Below are positions 29,002-42,350 of a stretch of 50,580 nucleotides of DNA, one piece after another (the first letter of the stretch is position 1; every line of letters starts with the position of its first letter). The notes below the pieces were generated by a model, which had not been told where the DNA came from, searched no databases, and saw nothing but the letters and a program-made list of their open reading frames with translations. The DNA comes from an uncultured Prevotellaceae bacterium (GTDB lineage Bacteria > Bacteroidota > Bacteroidia > Bacteroidales > Bacteroidaceae): contig ONTS01000016.1 of NCBI GenBank assembly GCA_900320845.1, positions 6,240 to 56,819 on the forward strand, given 5' to 3'. A program made the translations under genes and the position numbers.

Positions 29002-29697
29002 ATGACAAAATACATTAGAACCTTATCTGTTATCTACGACTTGCCCATTGCCCATAGCGAAATACCCCTTTTCCGTGGTGCTGTGTTGAAAACCCTTGAG
29101 GGGAAAGCCGACCTTTTATTTCATAATCACACCGGAGAAAACAGCTTTCGCTATGCCTATCCGCTTATCCAGTACAAACGCCTTGGAGGTAAAGCAGCGA
29201 TTGTATGTGTGGACAAGGCTGTGGATATTATAGGTCAGTTTTTGACAAAGTTTTCTGGTGAGTTGACTATTGGAGAGAAAAAGGTGAATGCGACGGTCAG
29301 CCAAATTATTCCTAATCGTCTTTTAGTGCAAACGTGGCAGACAATGTTCCAGTATCATATAACAAATTGGTTAGCATTAAATACAAAAAACTATTTGTTA
29401 TACCAAAAGACTACGAATGATGTAGAACGTAGACTTTTACTTGAAGGAATTCTAAAAGGCAATCTACTATCTATGCTTAAAGGTTTGGATATCCATTTAG
29501 AGACGGAGTTGCAGTTAGAAATTATTAGATTGAGTATTCCTCATGTTCTATATAATAAAGGTGTGGGTTTTACGACGTTTAATGCAGATTTTCAATGCAA
29601 TTTGTCAATCCCTCGAAATGTGGGAATTGGTAAGAATGCAAGCATAGGATATGGAAAAATTGGTATAGTTAATAAAAAAGAAGCACATCAACAATAA
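29002..29697 (+). CDS. cas6: CRISPR RNA endoribonuclease Cas6
   Basis: A 231-residue Cas6-type RAMP protein. It is expected to cut the repeat in the array transcript and leave an 8-nucleotide 5' handle (ATTAAGAC for this array). The C-terminal glycine-rich loop of RAMPs is clear in NVGIGKNASIGYGKIGIV. The N-terminal HSEIPLFRGAVLKTL resembles that of Bacteroidota Cas6 proteins. The active-site His cannot be assigned by eye. It is the first gene of the operon, and cas10 starts 6 bases after its stop. Confidence 0.8.
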   Translation: MTKYIRTLSVIYDLPIAHSEIPLFRGAVLKTLEGKADLLFHNHTGENSFRYAYPLIQYKRLGGKAAIVCVDKAVDIIGQFLTKFSGELTIGEKKVNATVSQIIPNRLLVQTWQTMFQYHITNWLALNTKNYLLYQKTTNDVERRLLLEGILKGNLLSMLKGLDIHLETELQLEIIRLSIPHVLYNKGVGFTTFNADFQCNLSIPRNVGIGKNASIGYGKIGIVNKKEAHQQ

Positions 29698-29703
29698 TAC
29701 TAT

Positions 29704-31170
29704 ATGGAAGCAATATTTGATAAACTGTTTATAGGAGGTGACCTTTCTGGCATCCAGAAGTTCCTCTATAATATTTCATCTCGCAAGGCGGCAGTGAGTC
29801 TGAAAGGACGATCAGCTTATTTAAGTCGTTACATGGAAAATGTAAAAGATAGTATAATCCAGATTGCTAAAGTCGCGGGTGCTGAAGATAGCAAGGATGT
29901 CTATTGTTCAGGTGGTAAGTTTTACATCATTACAGATAATAAGCCTTCTGTAGTTAATGCCATACATGATTTTTCCCTACAGGCTATTTCGGATTTGTGG
30001 AAAGATCATTTTGGTCAACTTAGCCTATGTATAGCCTGCGAACCATTTACGGAAAATGAGGATGGTACGGTGCAAGTACGCGATTTAAATAATGCTCCAT
30101 CTAGTAACCTTTGGCGTTTTGTGAATAATGAATTTGCTAGACAGAAAACACAAAAGTTTAAACCTATTATAGAAACAGCATACAACGAGTTTTTTAATCC
30201 TCTTCCTGTTGGTGGAACAACTAAAGTGTGTGCGATAACAGGTGTAGAATCCGATCAATGCCTGTCTATTCGGTTTAAAGGAACAGATGAGCCTATATAT
30301 GTGTTGCCGTCTGTAAAAGAGCAAATAGAACTTGGCGAATCAATCAAAGAGAAAGAAGGCAATAACAAGACTTTTGAAGACTATGCAGGTAATAGTTATC
30401 TAGGTGTGTTACGCATGGATGTTGATGGACTAGGATCACGTTTTATCCAAGGTTTTAAGTCTATTGATAAGTATCAAGAATTTTCAAAACGTCTTAAAGA
30501 CTTCTTTGAGGATGGTGTAAAACAGATTCAACGAGGAACGAAATATAAGGACTATTCTGATGTTATATATGCGGGAGGAGACGACTTATTTATTGTAGGT
30601 AGATGGGATGTTCTTATTGATCTTGCAGAGGAAATACACGAGAAAACAAAAGAGAATTTTGCTGATGAGAACATCAGCATCTCTGGAGGAATGGTTGTTG
30701 TCAATCCTAAATATCCTATAGCCAAAGCTGCTGAAGGTGCAGGTGAAGCCGAAGAGGCTGCCAAATCATTTCGTAATGGAGAAAAGAACGCTTTCCATTT
30801 TCTTGGCAGAACAGTTTCTTGGGTTGATGAGTTCGAGACAGTAAAGGAATATCAGAAGCGTTTTTGTAGTTTGATAAACGAACACGATATAAGTAAAGGC
30901 ATTTTGCATAAGTTGATGCTGTATGCTGCAATGTCAGATGAGAACAAACGAAGAAAAGCAGACAAACAATCAGAAGACTATAGCTATCTTTGGCATGCCA
31001 GCTACTACCTGACAAGGTATATGAAGCGGTATGATAAAGATGAAGAAGTGCAAAAGTTTTGTCAGGAACTACGCGACAAAGTAGTTCCAAAAGATGAGAG
31101 CAAACTGCAACTCGTAGCATTGGCTGCGCGATGGGCAGAATTATTATTAAGAGAAAATACTAACAATTAA
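29704..31170 (+). CDS. cas10: Cas10 (Csm1) lacking the HD nuclease domain
   Basis: A 488-residue large subunit of the type III-A complex. It starts directly with the first Palm-like domain (FIGGDLSGIQKFLYNISS, residues 9-26), with no N-terminal HD domain and no upstream room for one. The second Palm has VLRMDVDGLG (residues 235-244) and YAGGDDLFIVG, with GGDD at 291-294, so cyclic oligoadenylate synthesis should be intact. The C-terminal part is the alpha-helical D4-like region. The usual Csm1 is about 750 residues. Without HD, this complex should not cut single-stranded DNA through Cas10, and defence would rest on Csm3 and the CARF effectors. Confidence 0.93.
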   Translation: MEAIFDKLFIGGDLSGIQKFLYNISSRKAAVSLKGRSAYLSRYMENVKDSIIQIAKVAGAEDSKDVYCSGGKFYIITDNKPSVVNAIHDFSLQAISDLWKDHFGQLSLCIACEPFTENEDGTVQVRDLNNAPSSNLWRFVNNEFARQKTQKFKPIIETAYNEFFNPLPVGGTTKVCAITGVESDQCLSIRFKGTDEPIYVLPSVKEQIELGESIKEKEGNNKTFEDYAGNSYLGVLRMDVDGLGSRFIQGFKSIDKYQEFSKRLKDFFEDGVKQIQRGTKYKDYSDVIYAGGDDLFIVGRWDVLIDLAEEIHEKTKENFADENISISGGMVVVNPKYPIAKAAEGAGEAEEAAKSFRNGEKNAFHFLGRTVSWVDEFETVKEYQKRFCSLINEHDISKGILHKLMLYAAMSDENKRRKADKQSEDYSYLWHASYYLTRYMKRYDKDEEVQKFCQELRDKVVPKDESKLQLVALAARWAELLLRENTNN

Positions 31171-33298: not shown

Positions 33299-34405
33299 AT
33301 GGAAAATAAAAGGTATAAAATAAAATTGGAAGTTCTTACTCCATTGTGTGTAGGTGCTGGTAACGACAATGACTGGGTTGAGGGAATAGATTTTGTATGC
33401 GACAGAAATAGAGTGTACATTTTAGATATCAACAAGTTAACAGAATATGTTGAGGCCAAGGCGTTAACCAATCTCTTTCTTTCTCCAGATCGAAGATCAA
33501 TCTTAGCTCAGCTTGGCAACAATATTCAAAACGTATCTCGCTATGTTTTTGATAAACCTGCTGCATTTTCCCCGACAATAAAAAGTTTTTTGCGAACTCA
33601 ATTACACGACAAACCTATTGTTGCAGGTAGTTCGCTGAAAGGTGCTATTGATTCCGCATTGCTTTGGAATTTTCTGTTTGATGAAGATGACAAGTTAAAA
33701 CAAACATATAAACAGGGATCAAATAATAGACTGAATAGTGAATTGTTTGATAAGAATGAGAAAGATTTCAGACGATTTCTTAAAATAAGTGATATTGAAC
33801 TTGATTCTACCATCCTTGTCAATTCCAAGTTATTTAATTTGCGTAGCGTGATGAGAAATGAGTGGGAAGGAGGTTGGAAACATGGAAACGCCAACACTAC
33901 AGATAATTTTAGTCCAAAGGGCTTTAATACTTGGTATGAATGTGCAGAACCAGGAGCTAATGGTATAGGCTATATAAAGATTGATGCTAATGGCTTTTAT
34001 CGCTTACAACATACAAAGTTCTCAACTATAAAGCGAGAAATTGTTGATGGTGGAATTGAAAATCTTTTTAAAGTTATCAATGACCATACAATGGAATACT
34101 TGTATAAGGAATTGGACTTTTTTAAAAAGTATGAAGCGGATAAGACGGATGAAATCATTCGTAATATAAACACTTTACTTGATAAGTTCCCAGATAAAAA
34201 TAATTCCTATTGCATTTTAAAAATGTCAGCAGGTTCAGGTTTTCACTCTATAACAGGCGATTGGCAATACGATGACTATGATAAAACTGGTGTTTGGGAA
34301 ACAGGCAGAAATCGAGGTAAGAAAAAATATAAATCTCGTAAAACCTGTACGTACCAAGGTAAACAGCAATTGATGGGATTTGTAAAATTAAGTTGTATGG
34401 AATAA
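33299..34405 (+). CDS. csm5: Csm5 subunit
   Basis: A 368-residue RAMP protein that caps the 3' end of the crRNA and is involved in its maturation. The signatures are KLEVLTPLCVGAGND at the N-terminus, IVAGSSLKGAIDSALLW in the middle and the C-terminal QLMGFVKLS strand. The order csm4-csm5 and the 5-base gap agree with a III-A operon. The first CARF gene begins 8 bases after the stop. Confidence 0.92.
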   Translation: MENKRYKIKLEVLTPLCVGAGNDNDWVEGIDFVCDRNRVYILDINKLTEYVEAKALTNLFLSPDRRSILAQLGNNIQNVSRYVFDKPAAFSPTIKSFLRTQLHDKPIVAGSSLKGAIDSALLWNFLFDEDDKLKQTYKQGSNNRLNSELFDKNEKDFRRFLKISDIELDSTILVNSKLFNLRSVMRNEWEGGWKHGNANTTDNFSPKGFNTWYECAEPGANGIGYIKIDANGFYRLQHTKFSTIKREIVDGGIENLFKVINDHTMEYLYKELDFFKKYEADKTDEIIRNINTLLDKFPDKNNSYCILKMSAGSGFHSITGDWQYDDYDKTGVWETGRNRGKKKYKSRKTCTYQGKQQLMGFVKLSCME

Positions 34406-34413
34406 TCTTTATT

Positions 34414-35643
34414 ATGGCAAGAAAAGTTCTTATATCATTTCTCGGAACAGGACCACAAGGATCTGCTAATCGAGCAGAACGACAATACAGAGAGGCTGAC
34501 TATTATATAGGCAGTGACCATTTAGGCAAATACTCTTTTGTCTCTGCGGCATTGATAAAACATTATCATGTTGATACGCTGTTCCTCATTGGTTCTGTCC
34601 ATTCCATGTGGGAAAAGGTATACGAATGGTTTTGTGAGTTTCATGGAAAACCCATAGATGAAAATGTATGGACTGAGATTTTCGACTATTGTGATAAAGC
34701 GAATTATCAGTCACCATTAGAAATCCCACATAAGGATGTGATGGAGCAGGTTCTTGGGGGTGAGTCCCGAATCATACCCATTAAATATGGGCTTAACGAA
34801 GAGGATGTAAAAGATAATATCAATATAATTTTAGGCTTGCAGGCATTTCTCAAATGTGGTGATGAACTGATTGTAGATATTACGCATAGTTTTCGCTCAC
34901 TGCCTATGTTTATTATGAACTTGCTGATATATCTGCAAAATGCTAACCCGACAGTGAAAATATCACATATCCACTATGGCATGTTAGATGTGTCAAGTGA
35001 AATGGATTATAAAGTTCCTATTGTAGAACTAAAGTCTTTGATGGATGTAAGTCAATGGATTACAGGAATGTACACTTTTCGTGAATTTGGAAATGCTTAC
35101 AATATAGCCGAGTTGATAGAGGATGAAAACAAGAACACAAGCAATATGATGAAAGAGTTTTCTGACTTGATGAATCTCAATCACCTCTACGGAATACAAA
35201 AGATTTCGCAACGTTTAAGCTCTATAAAGAATAAGAAATACAACACGTTGTTGCCGCAGCTGACCATCAATCCTATAGTCAACGACTTTATAAAGCAGTT
35301 CCCGTCTGACGAAAAACGGCATTCCGTTTTTCAACTGAATGTCGCGCGATGGCAATATGAGCATAAGAAGTATGCGCAAGCCCTGCTCACAATCACTGAG
35401 ACGATAATTACATACGTGTGTGAATTGAATAAGTTCAACTGGGAGCATTATGATGATAGGGAAAAGGTGAAGGAGTTGTTACGTCAAAACAAAATAGTGG
35501 ATAATGGAGTTGGAAAAATCTATTTCAAACTTAATAGATTGCGTAACAATACCGCTCATGCAATATCTACTGATAATAATGTGCCCACTATGTTGAGCAA
35601 ATTGAAGCAAGGTTTAGAGCAACTGGAAAAAATAATTAAATAA
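34414..35643 (+). CDS. CARF-HEPN ribonuclease, TM1812/Csx1-like (first copy)
   Basis: A 409-residue type III effector. The N-terminal CARF domain starts MARKVLISFLGTG and carries the ligand-site motif DITHSFRSLP (155-164), as in the TM1812 family of CRISPR proteins. The C-terminal HEPN domain has the RNase motif RNNTAH (R377 to H382). Cyclic oligoadenylate made by Cas10 should bind the CARF dimer and switch on non-specific RNA cleavage. ATG 34414 is preferred to an upstream start inside csm5. It follows csm5 by 8 bases and precedes a paralogue by 9 bases. Confidence 0.9.
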   Translation: MARKVLISFLGTGPQGSANRAERQYREADYYIGSDHLGKYSFVSAALIKHYHVDTLFLIGSVHSMWEKVYEWFCEFHGKPIDENVWTEIFDYCDKANYQSPLEIPHKDVMEQVLGGESRIIPIKYGLNEEDVKDNINIILGLQAFLKCGDELIVDITHSFRSLPMFIMNLLIYLQNANPTVKISHIHYGMLDVSSEMDYKVPIVELKSLMDVSQWITGMYTFREFGNAYNIAELIEDENKNTSNMMKEFSDLMNLNHLYGIQKISQRLSSIKNKKYNTLLPQLTINPIVNDFIKQFPSDEKRHSVFQLNVARWQYEHKKYAQALLTITETIITYVCELNKFNWEHYDDREKVKELLRQNKIVDNGVGKIYFKLNRLRNNTAHAISTDNNVPTMLSKLKQGLEQLEKIIK

Positions 35644-35652
35644 TGCTACACT

Positions 35653-36993
35653 ATGGCAAGAAAGGTGTTTATGTCGTTTCTGGGAACGAACAACTATGTT
35701 GAATGCTATTATCGGATTCACGGAAAGTTGTCGCATCGTGTTAGGTTTGTACAAGAAGCATTGATAGCTGACATTTGTAAAGATTGGACAAACGATGATG
35801 CTATATATATATATTGTACTCCTGATGCACAAAAGGTGAACTGGGAGGATAACGGACAATCAAAAATATATGAAGATATAGAAAAAATAGGCTTAGAGCG
35901 TCGCTTACAAGAACTGAAGGAAAGTATGGGACTTGCTCCCACCATTGAGTCGGTTGAAATCAAAGAGGGTTTCAATGAAACAGAAATATGGGACATTTTT
36001 AATGTAGTATACAACACATTACAGGAGAATGACGAAATCCACTTTGACATGACTCATGCTTTTCGGTCAATACCACTATTCTCTATAGTTTTATTCAATT
36101 ACGCAAAGTTTATCAAGCACATTCTATTAAGTTCTGTCATGTATGGTGCCTTTGAGAAATTGGGACCGGCATATAAAGTACGTGGAATCCCCTTAGAAGA
36201 GAGGAAGGTAGATGTTATAGACTTGAATAATGTTGTTCGTCTACAAGAATATAACCAAGTGGCAAGCGGACTGCGAACATTTGGCAGGGTAGGAGAGTTG
36301 AGTGGTTTGGTGAATAATAACGATATCGAATCTAATAATGTCATAAAAGATTTTAGTGAGGCCATTTCCGAACTTGACCATAATATAAATACTATAAGCC
36401 TTCAAAAATTAAAAAAAGGGAAATATATCTATAAGTTCAAATCCAGCTATAAGAATATCCGTAAGCAGCAAGCATTGCCCAAACCCATCCAAAAAATCTG
36501 TGATGCACTGGATGAAGATATAAAAGACTTTGTGGAACAAGACGACTATGCCAATATTGAAGCAGCTATTCAATGGACTATTAAGTTTAAAATGCACATG
36601 CAGACTTTTTCTCTAACCGCAGAATATATAAAATTAGTAGGTGCTGAGAGATTTGATGATCTGTTACGCGAATGTTTAAATAAAAAACGTAAAGGCTTAA
36701 GCAACAAAGATAAGAGGGAATTTATCGGCGCTCTTTTAGGAATGGAGGATAAGGATTTTGATAACCCCACATCTTGGACAGGCAATCTTGCAAAAAATAT
36801 GGAAGTTGCCAAACGGATAGCGGATAAACCCTTTATAAGAGAATTAAGACCATTATACAAACCAATAGTATCCATTCGTAATAATATAGCACATGGCAAT
36901 GGTATTGATTCCGATAAATTAGAAGATGGAAATAATGCAGTTGCCAAATGTATCGAAAAGTTGAATGAGATTAATTCCAAAAATACACGTTGA
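35653..36993 (+). CDS. CARF-HEPN ribonuclease, TM1812/Csx1-like (second copy)
   Basis: A 446-residue paralogue of the previous protein. The start MARKVFMSFLGTN is almost the same, the CARF motif is DMTHAFRSIP (132-141) and the HEPN motif is RNNIAH (R409 to H414). Between them the sequences diverge strongly, and this copy has an extra helical, Lys-rich region (about 265-380). The different CARF pocket and linker suggest a different ligand ring size, RNA preference or dose response rather than plain redundancy. A hetero-dimer is also possible. It ends 5 bases before the small gene at 36999. Confidence 0.88.
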   Translation: MARKVFMSFLGTNNYVECYYRIHGKLSHRVRFVQEALIADICKDWTNDDAIYIYCTPDAQKVNWEDNGQSKIYEDIEKIGLERRLQELKESMGLAPTIESVEIKEGFNETEIWDIFNVVYNTLQENDEIHFDMTHAFRSIPLFSIVLFNYAKFIKHILLSSVMYGAFEKLGPAYKVRGIPLEERKVDVIDLNNVVRLQEYNQVASGLRTFGRVGELSGLVNNNDIESNNVIKDFSEAISELDHNINTISLQKLKKGKYIYKFKSSYKNIRKQQALPKPIQKICDALDEDIKDFVEQDDYANIEAAIQWTIKFKMHMQTFSLTAEYIKLVGAERFDDLLRECLNKKRKGLSNKDKREFIGALLGMEDKDFDNPTSWTGNLAKNMEVAKRIADKPFIRELRPLYKPIVSIRNNIAHGNGIDSDKLEDGNNAVAKCIEKLNEINSKNTR

Positions 36994-36998
36994 AAACT

Positions 36999-37355
36999 AT
37001 GCTCATCAATCTCTCCAATCATCCCTCTTCTTTGTGGTCGGCAGCGCAGATAGAGGCGGCACGGCAGTATGGAGTGATAGAGGATATGTCATTCCCCGTG
37101 ATAGATCCTGCCATGTCACATGACGAGATTCTGCAATGCGCACATGAGTATGCCGAACAGATAATGGCGAAAGCACGAAAATGTAATATCACCGTGCATG
37201 TCATGGGCGAGATGAATTTCGTTTATGCCTTGGTGGAAGAACTCAAAAATGATGGCATTACCTGTGTGGCATCTACCACAATTCGCAATGTGACAGAAGA
37301 AGCTAATGGCATGAAAACATCTACGTTCAACTTCGTACAGTTCCGCGAATACTAA
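36999..37355 (+). CDS. Small conserved protein, candidate ring nuclease or CARF-like regulator
   Basis: A 118-residue protein with an alternating strand-helix pattern like a compact Rossmann fold: MLINLSNHPSSLWSAAQIEA, then VIEDMSFPVIDP, VHVMGEMNFVYALVEELK, TCVASTTIRNV and FNFVQFREY. The MLINxSxHP beginning and overall size recall the small Csx15/Csx20-type proteins proposed to cleave cyclic oligoadenylate. That comparison is from memory and is not proven. Its position directly after the two CARF-HEPN genes fits a role in switching the signal off. A TTG start at 36990 is possible but would overlap the upstream gene. Confidence 0.6.
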   Translation: MLINLSNHPSSLWSAAQIEAARQYGVIEDMSFPVIDPAMSHDEILQCAHEYAEQIMAKARKCNITVHVMGEMNFVYALVEELKNDGITCVASTTIRNVTEEANGMKTSTFNFVQFREY

Positions 37356-37422: not shown

Positions 37423-38406
37423 ATGGAGCTCATCCTCAACACATACGGAGTATCTCTTAATCGCGACAATGAAGGATTTGTCATTACATCAACTGATGGT
37501 AGACAACGCATACCGGCAGAAGGCATCAAGTCTATACAGATCAGTCGTGGTGCACAGATAACCAGTGATGCTGTCATGCTGGCTGTTGAACGTGAGATTG
37601 AAATCCTTTTCATGGACAGAGCAGGCAATCCTATCGGACGTGTCTGGAGTCCACGTTACGGTTCTATATCCACAATACGTAAAGGACAACTTAACTTTAC
37701 CTTTACTCACGATGCCGTTGATTGGATTAAGGGCGTCATTATGCAAAAGATGGAAAATCAACAAGCACTTATGTTATTGTTGCAGACCGACGATGAAGCA
37801 CACGAAGTGTTGGTTCAGAAAAACATCCGACGCATTGAAGACTATCGTAGCAAAGTTAACAGTATTGATGGTGAGGTGGTCAGTGATGTAGCACCTTCTC
37901 TGCGAGGTTGGGAAGGGCAGGCTTCAAAAATATACTTTGCCACTCTGAACCGTTTCCTGCCCGAAGAATACCGATTTGAACAACGCACACAACACCCTGC
38001 TACAGACGTGGCTAATGCATTCCTTAACTATGGTTATGGAATATTGTACAGCAAAATAGAAGGTGTATTGATAAAAGCTGGCATTGACCCTTATGTTGGC
38101 ATTATGCATCGCGATGACTATAACCGTCCCGTACTTGTGTACGATATCATAGAACTTTATCGCATATGGGTCGACTATGTGGTTTTCACACTATTGGCTC
38201 ACAATACCATTTCAGACGAGTTCTATTCTGTGCGGGACGGTGGTTCTTTTTGGCTTGAACCATTAGGACGACGTGTGCTGATACAATCACTAAATGATTA
38301 TCTCGAAGAAACAATAGAAAAAGATGGAACAGTTCGCTCACGAATGACACACCTCATGTTGTATGTTCAAGAATTTGCACAAAAATTAAAACAATTCGAC
38401 AAATGA
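37423..38406 (+). CDS. cas1: CRISPR integrase Cas1
   Basis: A 327-residue Cas1 of normal length. The catalytic residues line up as E164 (RGWEGQASKIYF), H229 (GIMHRDDYNRP) and D241 (VYDIIELYR), with the beta-sandwich N-terminal domain (ELILNTYGVSLNRD) and ITSDAVMLAVEREI ahead of them. There is no fused reverse transcriptase. With Cas2 it inserts spacers at the leader end of the array. It lies 67 bases after the small gene. The stop overlaps the prim-pol-like gene by 4 bases, which strongly couples the two. Confidence 0.96.
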   Translation: MELILNTYGVSLNRDNEGFVITSTDGRQRIPAEGIKSIQISRGAQITSDAVMLAVEREIEILFMDRAGNPIGRVWSPRYGSISTIRKGQLNFTFTHDAVDWIKGVIMQKMENQQALMLLLQTDDEAHEVLVQKNIRRIEDYRSKVNSIDGEVVSDVAPSLRGWEGQASKIYFATLNRFLPEEYRFEQRTQHPATDVANAFLNYGYGILYSKIEGVLIKAGIDPYVGIMHRDDYNRPVLVYDIIELYRIWVDYVVFTLLAHNTISDEFYSVRDGGSFWLEPLGRRVLIQSLNDYLEETIEKDGTVRSRMTHLMLYVQEFAQKLKQFDK

Positions 38407-39443
38407 TGATGTTAGGAACCAATATACAATCGACTGCCGATCCTTTGAGAAAGATACAAGTAGAAGATCTGTTCCGCAGTCTGACAATGCCGCAACCCGC
38501 ATTGAACAGTCTCATCCGTCAATTGCGTATAGCCTATCAGATAAATCCAAAACAGTATTCTTTCCTTAAACGCTCACTGCCATATGTCGTTTGCGGCAGT
38601 TTTAATCCACCTTATCGAAGGACAGAAAATTTCGGATTTGTCGAACAGTTTATTATTGATATCGATCACCTCAGCACCAAAGGCATTACTCCTTCCAATC
38701 TTCAACAACGGCTTAAGAACGATAAACGCATAGCACTTTGTTTTACTTCTCCCAGTGAGGATGGTCTCAAACTTTTGTTCAGACTTTCAGAGCGGTGTTA
38801 CGATGCAGGAATGTACTCGATATTCTATAAGGAATTTCTGCGTAAATTCTCTTTACAATACCACTTGGAACAAGTCGTTGATTCACGCACTTCTGATGTG
38901 ACAAGAGCATGCTTTTTAAGCGTGGACACCAATGCGTGGATGAATAAAAAAAGTGAACTTGTATGTATGAAGGAATACATCGATTTTGACAATCCCCTTA
39001 TTGTATCAGATATTAAAGCAGAACATACACAGGCGGAAAAGGATGATAAACAGCAAAAATTGTTACAAGTTCAAAAAGACACACCAAAGAACAATCCCGA
39101 TCCCGACAGGGAAACTATGGAACGTATAAAACAACAACTTAATCTGCGAAAGAAACCATCAGTAGAGAAAACTACCGCCTTCATCCCTGAACAGTTAAAG
39201 GAAATCATTGATGAACTTAAATCATACATTGAAAAGACTGGCATCGTCGTGACAGAAATAATCAATATTCAGTATGCAAAAAAGATAAGAATGCGGATGG
39301 GGATGAAAGAAGGCGAAATCAACCTATTTTTTGGAAAACGTGGTTTTTCTGTAGTGCAGTCACCGCGCTGTGGGACAAATGCAGAGTTTAACGAACTTTG
39401 TGCAGAATTGATTCAAAGTTATGTTGACACACTCTATGTCTGA
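38403..39443 (+). CDS. Primase-polymerase-like (VirE-N/BT4734-type) protein between cas1 and cas2
   Basis: A 346-residue protein. Residues about 60-185 look like an archaeo-eukaryotic primase (AEP) catalytic core of the BT4734/VirE N-terminal type. Motif I is FIIDIDHL (DxD at 86-88), motif II is TSPSEDGLKLLF (115-126), and motif III is DSRTSDVTRACFLSVD (160-175). A charged, Gln-rich linker (about 205-260) leads to a C-terminal domain of unknown fold (about 265-346). Prim-pols associated with cas1 and cas2 are known in other type III loci and are thought to help make or repair spacer DNA. ATG 38403 overlaps the cas1 stop, and cas2 follows after 5 bases. Polymerase activity here is inferred. 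Confidence 0.72.
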   Translation: MMMLGTNIQSTADPLRKIQVEDLFRSLTMPQPALNSLIRQLRIAYQINPKQYSFLKRSLPYVVCGSFNPPYRRTENFGFVEQFIIDIDHLSTKGITPSNLQQRLKNDKRIALCFTSPSEDGLKLLFRLSERCYDAGMYSIFYKEFLRKFSLQYHLEQVVDSRTSDVTRACFLSVDTNAWMNKKSELVCMKEYIDFDNPLIVSDIKAEHTQAEKDDKQQKLLQVQKDTPKNNPDPDRETMERIKQQLNLRKKPSVEKTTAFIPEQLKEIIDELKSYIEKTGIVVTEIINIQYAKKIRMRMGMKEGEINLFFGKRGFSVVQSPRCGTNAEFNELCAELIQSYVDTLYV

Positions 39444-39448
39444 ATGTC

Positions 39449-39928
39449 ATGACAAAAAAGAAAACAGCTCTCCACTATCTGGAAGTGTTGCACAAATTGA
39501 AAACTTCAGGCTTGGCATCATCTCCTCCTGTCAATCGACGTACAGGCAGGCTTGATGATATGCCTGGATTGAAAGAGCGGGTGAATCATATTCTCGGTAT
39601 AACTAAAAAAGCTAAAAAGAACAGTAGTAGCATGTTGTTTTTCGTAATGTATGACATTGAAAGTAATAAGGTGAGATACAATGTAGTAAAGTACCTTGAT
39701 CGAATGGGTTGCTATCGCATACAGAAATCCATATTTCTTGCAGATCTTTCCATAGACCGTTATGAAAAGATTAAAACGGACTTGGCAGAAATACAATCCC
39801 TCTATGATAATCACGACAGCATCATCGTTTGCCCTGTGTCTTCAGACCTCCTCCGAAGTATGAAGATAATAGGACAGAATATCAACCTCGACATCATTAC
39901 CCACAGCAAAAATACACTGTTCTTTTAA
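39449..39928 (+). CDS. cas2: Cas2 with an N-terminal extension
   Basis: A 159-residue protein, against 85-100 for most Cas2. The Cas2 ferredoxin-like core is residues about 62-159: MLFFVMYDIESN with D69 of the usual YDI motif, then YLDRMGCYRIQKSIFLADL and IIVCPVSSDLL. The first 60 residues (KKKTALHYLEVLHKLKTS and PGLKERVNHILGITKKAKK) are basic and partly helical, and I do not recognise them. Met62 could be a second start for the core alone. ATG 39449 lies 5 bases after the prim-pol-like gene, which favours the long form. Confidence 0.9.
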   Translation: MTKKKTALHYLEVLHKLKTSGLASSPPVNRRTGRLDDMPGLKERVNHILGITKKAKKNSSSMLFFVMYDIESNKVRYNVVKYLDRMGCYRIQKSIFLADLSIDRYEKIKTDLAEIQSLYDNHDSIIVCPVSSDLLRSMKIIGQNINLDIITHSKNTLFF

Positions 39929-39946
39929 AAACAAAAGAATTCGTTC

Positions 39947-39976
39947 TTTGACATTTTGAAACATTTACTACCTTTG
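39947..39976 (+). promoter_or_regulatory. Promoter in the CRISPR leader
   Basis: TTTG at 39947-39950 and TACCTTTG at 39969-39976 are 18 bases apart. Transcription would start near 39983 and read through the array on the plus strand, in agreement with the degenerate repeat at the far end. Confidence 0.7.
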
Positions 39977-40016
39977 CACTCCCAAAAACGAGACACTTTT
40001 TCACGTGTTTTTCGTA

Positions 40017-40059
40017 TGATATCAATGTTTCTTCTTTTTTATTCATCTTGATATCAATG
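40017..40059 (+). promoter_or_regulatory. Leader direct repeat next to the array
   Basis: TGATATCAATG occurs at 40017-40027 and again at 40049-40059, start to start 32 bases (about three helical turns). The second copy ends 16 bases before the first CRISPR repeat. The core TGATATCA is itself a palindrome. It may be a leader anchoring site for the integrase complex or a regulator. Confidence 0.5.
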
Positions 40060-40075
40060 CGTTATTTGATTTAGA

Positions 40076-40636
40076 GGCAAAGCCCATATTCCACTAAAAC
40101 AAGGATTAAGACGGTTGCACCGGCAGCTTTCGCGCGCGCGGTGATCACGTGGCAAAGCCCATATTCCACTAAAACAAGGATTAAGACGGTGCGTGCTGGA
40201 TGTGTGTGTGTCAACTTCCCATTCTTGGCAAAGCCCATATTCCACTAAAACAAGGATTAAGACTCTTGCCTGCCTGATGCCTTCGAGGATTGAACGGGCG
40301 GCAAAGCCCATATTCCACTAAAACAAGGATTAAGACAGTTCGGAGTGGAGCTGGGAAAAAAGCTCTTTGTTTGCGGGCAAAGCCCATATTCCACTAAAAC
40401 AAGGATTAAGACACGTGCAAAGCTGATGAGAGACATTGAGTTCTTGATTGGCAAAGCCCATATTCCACTAAAACAAGGATTAAGACGTCAGAGAACAGCC
40501 AACTCCCTAACAGTCATTTATTTTAGGCAAAGCCCATATTCCACTAAAACAAGGATTAAGACGCATACTGGAAGTCGTCGAGAGTTCCTGTTTCCATGGG
40601 GCAAAGCCCATATTCCACTAAAACAAGGATTAAAAA
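40076..40636 (+). CRISPR. CRISPR array, 8 repeats and 7 spacers
   Basis: The 37-base repeat runs from GGCAAAGCCC to GGATTAAGAC and starts at 40076, 40151, 40227, 40300, 40376, 40450, 40526 and 40600. The first seven copies are identical. The last departs in its final bases (AAA instead of GAC at 40634-40636), as expected at the leader-distal end. Spacers are 38, 39, 36, 39, 37, 39 and 37 bases and show no repetition among themselves. The array is transcribed on the plus strand from the leader promoter. Its last 8 bases, ATTAAGAC, would be the crRNA 5' handle. It is preceded by the complete cas operon on the same strand. Confidence 0.98.
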
Positions 40637-40886: not shown

Positions 40887-42350
40887 ATGTGTCCATCGTC
40901 AACATCTTCTATCAATCTCACAACCAGTCAGAAACAGGTTTTGGATAAGATGCTTCATTTTGTGAGTGACTCCTCCGACCGGGTGTTCATCTTGAAAGGT
41001 TATGCCGGAACGGGTAAAACTACGCTGATGCGATTCTTCATCCATGCTTTGAGTGAAGATAAAAAGTCTTTCCAGTTGTTGGCATCAACAGGCCGTGCGG
41101 CGAAGATACTGGCTAATCATACCCAGATGGTAACATCCACCATACATAGTATGATATACGAGTATAGTGGTTTCAATCAAGATGTGAATGCCAAGGATTT
41201 TACTAATGTTGATGCCAATGGGCAATTATATCTTGTTTTTGAAGAAAAGAGTGTTGAGGAGAATGACCCAGAGCGGGTGTATATTGTTGATGAAGCGTCG
41301 ATGGTGTCGGATGTAGAAGAAAAAGACATCACTCAGGCGCAGTTTGGTGGGGGATGGTTACTGAAGACTCTGTTGAAGTATGATTGTCGTCCTGGCAGCA
41401 AGTTTGTCTTTGTGGGCGACCCGTGTCAGTTGCCACCAGTGGGGCAGTACACGTCACCGGCATTGTCGGTGGATTATTTCCGCAGTATAGGTCAATCAGC
41501 ACAGGAGGCACAACTTACTGAGATCATGCGTCAAGATGATTCGAATGGTATTGTTCATGCTTCGAAAATAATTCGTGACCGTTATGAGCAGGCTCCTGAG
41601 ACGCAGTCGGCCTATGGCACACAACGTATATGGGCGAAGCTGCCTTTCCGTAATAATGCCAATATCGTGTTGCATTCCAGTCTGGAAGACATGCAGGCTG
41701 ATTATTTGCAACGCTATAATGTTGCAGGACCCAATAGTGTGGTGTTCATTAGTTACACTAACAAAGAGTGCCGTAGAAGGTCGGAGTCTATACGCGAGTC
41801 ACTGGGACTCAACGGTAACATTATAACAGAGAACGACCTGTTACTGATCATCCAGAACAATATCAATGTGGGATTGATGAATGGTGATATGGTACAGGTG
41901 TTAAAGGTGCAACCCAACACGCGCATCACGGCATCGTTGCGATTTAGGGAAGTGAGGCTGAGAGAGATCTTTACCAAGATAGAGTGTTCGACGTTGATGT
42001 TAGAAGACACATTGCGCCAACAAAGATTGAATCTTGACGCTTCACAGCAGCATGAGTTGTTTGTTGACTTCGTGATGCGAATGCGTAAGAAGGGGATAAC
42101 TCCTAAGGACGATAAGCAAAAGTTTGACAGTGCTCTGATGAACGATCCCTTCCTCAATGCCCTTCGTTGTGTGTACGGCTATTCGTTGACGTGCCACAAG
42201 GCTCAGGGTGGTGAGTGGGACCATGTGTACCTGAACGTGCCACGCAATATAACGTTTAACCCGACAAAGGCTTCTTACCAGTGGCTGTACACTGCCATGA
42301 CACGCGCCAGACATTATCTACACATGGTGGATGACTTTTACTTTGAGTAG
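40887..42350 (+). CDS. RecD-like superfamily 1 DNA helicase
   Basis: A 487-residue ATP-dependent helicase. Walker A is GYAGTGKTTLMRF (about residues 32-44), with LASTGRAAKIL (motif Ia). Walker B is VYIVDEASMVSD, then FVGDPCQLPPVGQ (motif III). The C-terminal UvrD-like part has YSLTCHKAQGGEWDHVYLN and YTAMTRARHYL. It is a short relative of RecD2 without the long N-terminal domain. It has its own promoter, so although it touches the CRISPR array I regard it as an ordinary chromosomal repair gene rather than part of the system. Confidence 0.85.
   Translation: MCPSSTSSINLTTSQKQVLDKMLHFVSDSSDRVFILKGYAGTGKTTLMRFFIHALSEDKKSFQLLASTGRAAKILANHTQMVTSTIHSMIYEYSGFNQDVNAKDFTNVDANGQLYLVFEEKSVEENDPERVYIVDEASMVSDVEEKDITQAQFGGGWLLKTLLKYDCRPGSKFVFVGDPCQLPPVGQYTSPALSVDYFRSIGQSAQEAQLTEIMRQDDSNGIVHASKIIRDRYEQAPETQSAYGTQRIWAKLPFRNNANIVLHSSLEDMQADYLQRYNVAGPNSVVFISYTNKECRRRSESIRESLGLNGNIITENDLLLIIQNNINVGLMNGDMVQVLKVQPNTRITASLRFREVRLREIFTKIECSTLMLEDTLRQQRLNLDASQQHELFVDFVMRMRKKGITPKDDKQKFDSALMNDPFLNALRCVYGYSLTCHKAQGGEWDHVYLNVPRNITFNPTKASYQWLYTAMTRARHYLHMVDDFYFE

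What the first reader, a model, noticed from the sequence alone, without database searches (positions are those of the whole stretch)
37423..39928. cas1 / primase-polymerase / cas2 as one coupled adaptation unit without a reverse transcriptase
The AEP-like gene (motifs DID 86-88, SPSEDGLK, DSRTSDVTRACFLS) starts inside the cas1 stop and ends 5 bases before cas2. Such tight placement between the two integrase genes argues that a primase or polymerase works directly in spacer capture. Prim-pols linked to CRISPR adaptation are known in some other type III loci. Here the protein is of the VirE-N/BT4734 type with an unassigned C-terminal domain, and Cas1 carries no reverse transcriptase, so spacers may be built from DNA or gap-filled by this enzyme.
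Basis: partly seen in the sequence, partly recalled or inferred. Interest (0 to 1): 0.8.

Follow-up and report, generated by a model that had tools for sequence, protein, structure and literature searches.

The report
Known CRISPR primase-polymerase between cas1 and cas2
A bacterial CRISPR immune locus carries a small DNA-making enzyme between its two spacer-inserting genes; this is a published arrangement (CAPP class B), though a matching tail on its Cas2 protein and the kinship of the enzyme's end domain were not found in the papers searched.

Summary
cas1 (37423-38406), an AEP gene (38403-39443, ATGA overlap) and cas2 (39449-39928, 5-nt gap) form a tight unit in a type III-A locus with no linked reverse transcriptase. 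The idea is already in print. The AEP protein scores 406.7 bits against NCBIfam NF040562, 'CRISPR-associated primase-polymerase type B' (cut-off 200). Zabrady et al. 2021 (PMC8211822) described this class, with its VirE_N domain, place between cas1 and cas2, catalytic D86/D88, DNA priming and polymerisation, and binding to Cas1 and Cas2. What I add: (1) the unit is conserved: cas1 upstream in 27 of 28 relatives, cas2 downstream in 27 of 28; Cas1 and CAPP tree distances agree (r 0.81). (2) A ~60-residue N-terminal extension of Cas2 goes with CAPP_B: in 393 genomes, 20 of 21 extended Cas2 hits lie in CAPP_B loci, and 20 of 20 genomes over the CAPP_B cut-off have one. (3) The 'unassigned' C-terminal domain is a remote relative of the TBP-like domain of TOTE conflict-system helicases.

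The parts
37423..38406 (+). cas1 integrase, 327 aa, no RT or other fused domain above cut-off
   Evidence: PF01867 9e-66; TIGR00287 231.8 bits
38403..39443 (+). CAPP_B: CRISPR-associated primase-polymerase type B, 346 aa
   Evidence: NF040562 406.7 bits, cut-off 200; PF08800 at residues 55-178
39174..39440 (+). C-terminal domain of CAPP_B (residues 258-346), remote relative of the TBP-TOTE domain
   Evidence: PF22721 at 263-334, E 0.0033, below cut-off; profile-profile 94.5%, E 7.7e-8; reciprocal genome searches
39449..39928 (+). cas2, 159 aa
   Evidence: PF09827 at residues 62-132, 8.3e-13
39449..39631 (+). N-terminal extension of Cas2 (residues 1-61), found with CAPP_B
39929..40075 (+). leader region between cas2 and array (inferred from the degenerate last repeat at the far end)
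40076..40636 (+). CRISPR array: 8 repeats of 37 nt (last one degenerate at its 3' end), 7 spacers of 36-39 nt
40887..42350 (+). RecD/PIF1-like SF1 helicase, 487 aa; a homologue lies upstream of cas1 in 13 of 28 relatives
   Evidence: AAA_30, UvrD_C_2
29002..29697 (+). cas6
   Evidence: Cas6b_C, Cas6b_N
29704..31170 (+). cas10/csm1, 488 aa, GGDD at 291
   Evidence: TIGR02578 313.5 bits
31182..34405 (+). csm2, csm3, csm4 and a further RAMP gene, csm5 by position: type III-A effector genes
   Evidence: Csm2 and RAMP, Csm4, Csm3; 'csm5' is inferred from the RAMP hit and its place
34393..37355 (+). two CARF-HEPN (Csx1/Csm6-type) genes and csx20
   Evidence: PADLOC models; csx20 is below the NCBIfam cut-off (37.4 against 70); RxxxxH motifs

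Best explanation
This is a CAPP_B adaptation cassette. The 38403-39443 protein is an AEP-type DNA-dependent primase-polymerase that binds Cas1 (and Cas2) and makes DNA for spacer acquisition. Most likely it turns single-stranded or nicked invader DNA into duplex prespacers and/or fills the repeat gaps left after Cas1-Cas2 integration, with the nearby RecD-like helicase supplying or unwinding strands. Shown here: family membership, conserved catalytic residues, operon conservation, co-divergence with Cas1, near-exclusive pairing with N-extended Cas2, and no linked RT. Shown for homologues in print: polymerase, primase and strand-displacement activity, Cas1/Cas2 interaction, and D86/D88 dependence. 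Inferred: the exact step, action in this organism, docking through the Cas2 extension, and nucleic-acid handling by the TBP-like C-terminal domain.
For: NF040562 406.7 bits against cut-off 200 over residues 2-340. Invariant motif I/II/III residues in 29 of 29. cas1 upstream, same strand, in 27 of 28 relatives (gap at most 35 nt in 24 of 27); cas2 downstream, same strand, in 27 of 28 (gap at most 49 nt in 23 of 27). CAPP-Cas1 tree distances correlate r = 0.81 in 27 loci (0 of 2000 permutations as high); in the 20 loci with a Csx20 row, CAPP-Cas1 0.87 against CAPP-Csx20 0.44. Of 31 genomes with a CAPP_B gene, 13 have an RVT_1 hit; only G335 has one on the CAPP contig, and the nearest is 28 kb away. 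Activities, interactions and proposed roles: PMC8211822, abstract and sections 6, 7, 8, 14, 15.
Against: No structure could be predicted. No spacer found a target (0 of 7 in viral contigs by one exact 22-mer each; none in phages for the array), so DNA origin of these spacers is untested. Contigs of many relatives are short, so RT absence is only local. Gene order is not fixed outside this order: Runella has CAPP-cas2-cas1, and Persicobacter has cas2 divergent and cas1 about 2.7 kb downstream of CAPP; in G035 a helicase-like ORF separates CAPP and cas2 by about 3 kb. Csx20 rows are short (about 117 aa), so their lower correlation is partly noise, and the CAPP-Csx20 correlation is itself above chance (2 of 2000 permutations as high).
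Confidence: 0.85

Rival explanations
1. The enzyme is a passenger: a plasmid/transposon VirE_N primase gene lodged in the cas operon with no role in adaptation.
For: BT4734/VirE_N domains are common in other contexts: 79 of 393 genomes have some match at E <= 0.001 but only 20 pass the CAPP_B cut-off. CAPP_B also lies on plasmids.
Against: Conserved place beside cas1/cas2 and co-divergence with Cas1; near-exclusive pairing with extended Cas2; published Cas1/Cas2 binding.
Confidence: 0.05
2. It serves only post-integration gap repair, not prespacer synthesis.
For: Displacement synthesis that completes the integrated intermediate is one of the roles proposed in PMC8211822, section 15.
Against: De novo priming by the homologue DbCAPP is not needed for gap filling.
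Confidence: 0.25
3. Spacers are captured from RNA, with CAPP copying RNA.
For: Type III effectors act on RNA targets (established knowledge); RT-Cas1 systems acquire from RNA and DNA (PMC11014452, start of abstract in the listing).
Against: No RT linked; DbCAPP strongly prefers DNA templates and is weak on RNA (PMC8211822 section 7).
Confidence: 0.05

Closest known systems
CAPP_B / DbCAPP, NF040562 (Zabrady et al. 2021, PMC8211822)
   Same: VirE_N catalytic domain, D86/D88 numbering, place between cas1 and cas2, type III locus, RecD-like helicase nearby, simple architecture
   Different: Different genome; here the helicase lies beyond the array, whereas in 13 of 28 relatives it is upstream of cas1. 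The paper's main text holds no 'TATA' or 'TOTE' and no 'extension of Cas2' (find); it calls the end region a diverse smaller C-terminus.
CAPP_A (Marinitoga MpCAPP; CART-CAPP fusions)
   Same: CRISPR-linked Prim-Pol with cas1/cas2
   Different: CAPP_A types have TPR, RT or helicase fusions; none here
TOTE conflict systems (PF22548, PF22721)
   Same: A distantly related C-terminal TBP-like domain, and a related RecD-like helicase
   Different: No AEP-TOTE domain in CAPP_B; the TBP-like domain sits on the primase here, on the helicase there
PADLOC RTasVirE-PriCT2 (labelled DRT)
   Same: The model matches residues 11-251, 89.1 bits
   Different: No RT beside it here; the match stops before the C-terminal domain. 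PADLOC also has a CRISPR-associated PrimPol model (73.4 bits, residues 55-178)

Membership tests
CAPP_B | Scores over the curated cut-off of NF040562 | tested here: met
   406.7 against 200 bits
CAPP_B | VirE_N/BT4734-like AEP catalytic domain with DxD | tested here: met
   PF08800; D86, D88 invariant in 29 of 29
CAPP_B | Operonic with cas1 and cas2 in a type III locus | tested here: met
CAPP_B | Bacteroidota host | tested here: inconclusive
CAPP_B | DNA primase and polymerase activity; binding to Cas1/Cas2 | not testable with these tools
   shown for DbCAPP in PMC8211822
CAPP_B | AEP fold in a predicted structure | not tested
   tool unavailable
CAPP_A | TPR, RT or helicase domain fused to the Prim-Pol domain | tested here: not met
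   no such Pfam hit
RT-Cas1 adaptation module | RT fused or adjacent to Cas1 | tested here: not met
TOTE conflict system | AEP-TOTE catalytic domain PF22548 | tested here: not met
   no hit at E <= 1; an L094 gene scores 1.6e-79 as a positive
TBP-TOTE domain (PF22721), for the C-terminal domain only | Scores over the Pfam cut-off of 27 bits | tested here: not met
   17.4 bits; remote homology supported

The most novel reading that the evidence does not exclude
CAPP_B adaptation has a purpose-built Cas2: its ~60-residue N-terminal arm (R44 in 28 of 28 rows, L41 in 25, G21 in 25) docks the primase-polymerase onto the Cas1-Cas2 integrase, while CAPP's C-terminal TBP-like domain, shared with TOTE conflict-system helicases, grips DNA near the prespacer end. 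Integrase and polymerase would then act as one machine that makes and inserts spacers.
Probability: 0.35. Interest if true: 0.55.

Novelty: already known. Interest (0 to 1): 0.32.

Why it matters
The locus itself is a further example of a published system. The useful additions are a testable docking element (the Cas2 extension that occurs with CAPP_B almost without exception in the sample) and a likely kinship for the C-terminal domain that the original paper called a diverse smaller C-terminus. Both turn 'which step does CAPP serve, and how is it recruited' into simple deletion experiments.

Tried and rejected
Structure prediction of CAPP was asked for three times and of Cas2 once; none was accepted, so the AEP-fold test is undone. 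PDB sequence searches with the protein, the full profile A1 and the C-terminal profile A3 gave nothing better than E 0.59, 0.12 and 1.6. The search for related loci in genome contigs found no relative. Spacer targets: none for 7 of 7 spacers (one exact 22-mer core each) and none in phages for the array. Promoter and terminator scans gave no excess to speak of (50 against mean 42.6, sd 6.9; 9 against 8.4, sd 2.9). The script translated minus-strand loci in the wrong direction; those rows were discarded and redone. Rows left out of the 29-row CAPP alignment: the second G171 copy (L032), G323 (cut by the contig end), G747 (stop inside). L051 was left out of the 27-row Cas2 alignment A2 (cut by the contig end). 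A5 holds 13 of the 15 over-cut-off TBP-TOTE places. Considered and rejected: RT-linked system, passenger gene, CAPP_A.

Full report
What is there. The window holds a type III-A CRISPR locus on the + strand: cas6, cas10/csm1, csm2-csm4 and a further RAMP gene (csm5 by position), two CARF-HEPN genes, csx20, cas1, an AEP gene, cas2, then an array of 8 repeats. The AEP start codon overlaps the cas1 stop (ATGA) and cas2 starts 5 nt after the AEP stop.

What it is. The AEP protein scores 406.7 bits against NCBIfam NF040562, CRISPR-associated primase-polymerase type B (cut-off 200), with BT4734-like_N at residues 55-178. In the 29 aligned proteins the DxD (D86, D88), motif II (S116, P117, G121, L122, K123) and D160/D165/R168/D175 are invariant (the motif names are recalled). 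In PMC8211822 (abstract and sections 6, 7, 8, 14, 15 read; passages searched), class CAPP_B is described as having this VirE_N domain and as found predominantly in type III operons and almost exclusively in Bacteroidetes. Its example DbCAPP lies between cas1 and cas2, is a DNA primase and polymerase that prefers DNA templates, loses polymerase activity with D86A/D88A, and interacts with Cas1 and Cas2 (yeast two-hybrid; Cas1 also by pull-down); DbCas1 also interacts with a RecD-like helicase. The finding's central proposal is therefore already published.

Conservation of the unit. 20 of 393 genomes of the order and 11 of 399 of the family (the window's genome is in both) hold a CAPP_B over cut-off. 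In 28 relatives examined, cas1 is upstream on the same strand in 27 (no cas1 was found in L049, where the contig gives only about 600 nt upstream), and cas2 is downstream on the same strand in 27 (none seen in L044, where only about 75 nt lie beyond CAPP). Gaps are at most 35 nt in 24 of 27 (the others 75, 130 and 412) and at most 49 nt in 23 of 27 (the others 134, 168, 210 and 2992); starts were chosen as the nearest Met. Patristic distances of CAPP and Cas1 (quick trees) correlate at r = 0.81 in 27 loci, 0 of 2000 permutations as high; in the 20 loci with a Csx20 row, CAPP-Cas1 is 0.87 and CAPP-Csx20 0.44, the latter reached by 2 of 2000. Outside the order the arrangement varies: Runella has CAPP-cas2-cas1 beside a III-B cmr6, and Persicobacter has cas2 divergent.

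No reverse transcriptase. Cas1 is 327 aa with only the Cas1 domain above cut-off. In 31 genomes carrying a CAPP_B gene (30 over cut-off plus G323, cut by a contig end), 13 have an RVT_1 hit; in 12 of these all hits are on other contigs than CAPP, and in G335 the nearest is 28 kb away. Many CAPP contigs are short, so this is a local statement.

Cas2 extension. The window's Cas2 domain starts at residue 62. All 28 Cas2 rows have 52-65 residues before the Met that aligns with M62, with R44 in 28 of 28 and L41 in 25 of 28. A genome search with the whole profile found 53 places in 393 genomes, at most 9 candidates per genome being scored. 21 match from profile position 12 or earlier: 20 are in the 20 genomes over the CAPP_B cut-off, in the CAPP locus (within about 0.4 kb in 19, about 3 kb off in G035), and the other is a cas2 with an internal stop in G062, with no cas1 or CAPP recognised in 20 kb (L095). 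The other 32 places start at position 30 or later (28 of 32 at 52 or later). Of 12 further stretches fetched, 10 hold cas1 and cas2 and no CAPP, and their Cas2 matches only from profile position 54 or later (L096-L102, L104-L106); the other two are L095 and the deleted locus L103. Some of these stretches are short (3-5 kb). Four genomes (G020, G149, G171, G249) hold both kinds of Cas2 hit. Both plasmid CAPP_B loci also have Cas2 residues before the domain, aligned from profile position 4 in Persicobacter and 29 in Runella. This could be a lineage marker of one Cas1-Cas2 branch; I take a docking role as a hypothesis.

The C-terminal domain. Residues 258-346 hold invariant I289, E305, N307, G311 and G314. 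PF22721 (TBP-like domain of TOTE conflict systems) matches 14 of 29 members at E <= 1, best 3.7e-4, the window's own below cut-off. The reciprocal tests agree. A profile of the CAPP domain, run on 295 genomes, finds 20 places: 18 in CAPP_B genes and 2 in RecD-like helicases, the latter weak (E 1.6e-4 and 3.7e-4). Pfam finds PF22721 in both helicases (G026 1.1e-29; G017 3.9e-5, below cut-off there but over it). The G017 gene lies on a contig with an AEP-TOTE gene and the G026 gene beside an S1CSD-TOTE gene. PF22721 itself, run on 295 genomes, gives 18 places: 15 over cut-off in ORFs of 605-1020 aa (the ORFs of two genomes examined) and 3 below it, all three CAPP_B C-termini; so it reaches only 3 of the 18 CAPP_B C-termini seen, but nothing else. 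Profile against profile, with 13 of the 15 places: probability 94.5%, E 7.7e-8. Against one single sequence the probability was only 60%. So the domain is a remote relative, not a Pfam member by cut-off.

Helicase. The RecD/PIF1-like gene at 40887-42350 matches genes upstream of cas1, within about 1.8 kb, in 13 of 28 relatives, one of them on the opposite strand; a fourteenth, weak match in L088 lies 5 kb downstream and is not counted. Several stretches were too short to tell. Here the gene lies beyond the array.

Mechanism. Most likely CAPP_B builds or completes DNA for Cas1-Cas2. The literature offers prespacer synthesis and post-integration displacement synthesis (section 15); I cannot choose between them from sequence. 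Spacer searches gave no targets (0 of 7).

Literature limits. Searches (open-licence PMC library) led to PMC8211822 (parts named above), PMC10415136 (passages) and PMC10345425 (passages). Other listed papers that mention CAPP or CRISPR-associated primase-polymerases were not opened. No paper held 'TOTE conflict systems', and the three papers listed for a Cas2 N-terminal extension (listing only) do not by title concern CAPP_B except PMC10415136. Subscription papers and supplements were not searched.

Noticed in passing
L093:9262-10017: G564 carries a csx1-type gene, then an 85-aa frame that matches only the CAPP C-terminal domain (63% identical), then extended cas2; no cas1 or AEP domain was recognised in the 20 kb: a partly deleted cassette.
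   Followed up: partly
L103:10266-10708: G159 has a III-A locus with helicase where only about the first 88 profile positions of cas1 and the last 51 of cas2 are matched; CAPP was not recognised.
   Followed up: partly
29704-31170: Cas10/Csm1 is short (488 aa; 853 aa in L086) and begins near the Csm1_B domain, so the N-terminal HD region seems absent (not tested directly); GGDD is kept at 291.
   Followed up: no
L094:3-11293: G017 holds a TOTE-like locus with a RecD-like helicase bearing a TBP-like domain, an RVT_1 reverse transcriptase, a conflict-type histidine kinase and an AEP-TOTE helicase in one stretch.
   Followed up: partly
L049:2184-4601: In G035 an 805-aa helicase-like ORF (family by eye, not scanned) lies between CAPP and cas2.
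   Followed up: no
34393-36993: Two different CARF-HEPN genes plus csx20 sit side by side before cas1; both keep an RxxxxH motif.
   Followed up: no
L146, L147: CAPP_B loci also sit on plasmids of Runella and Persicobacter, with altered gene order.
   Followed up: partly
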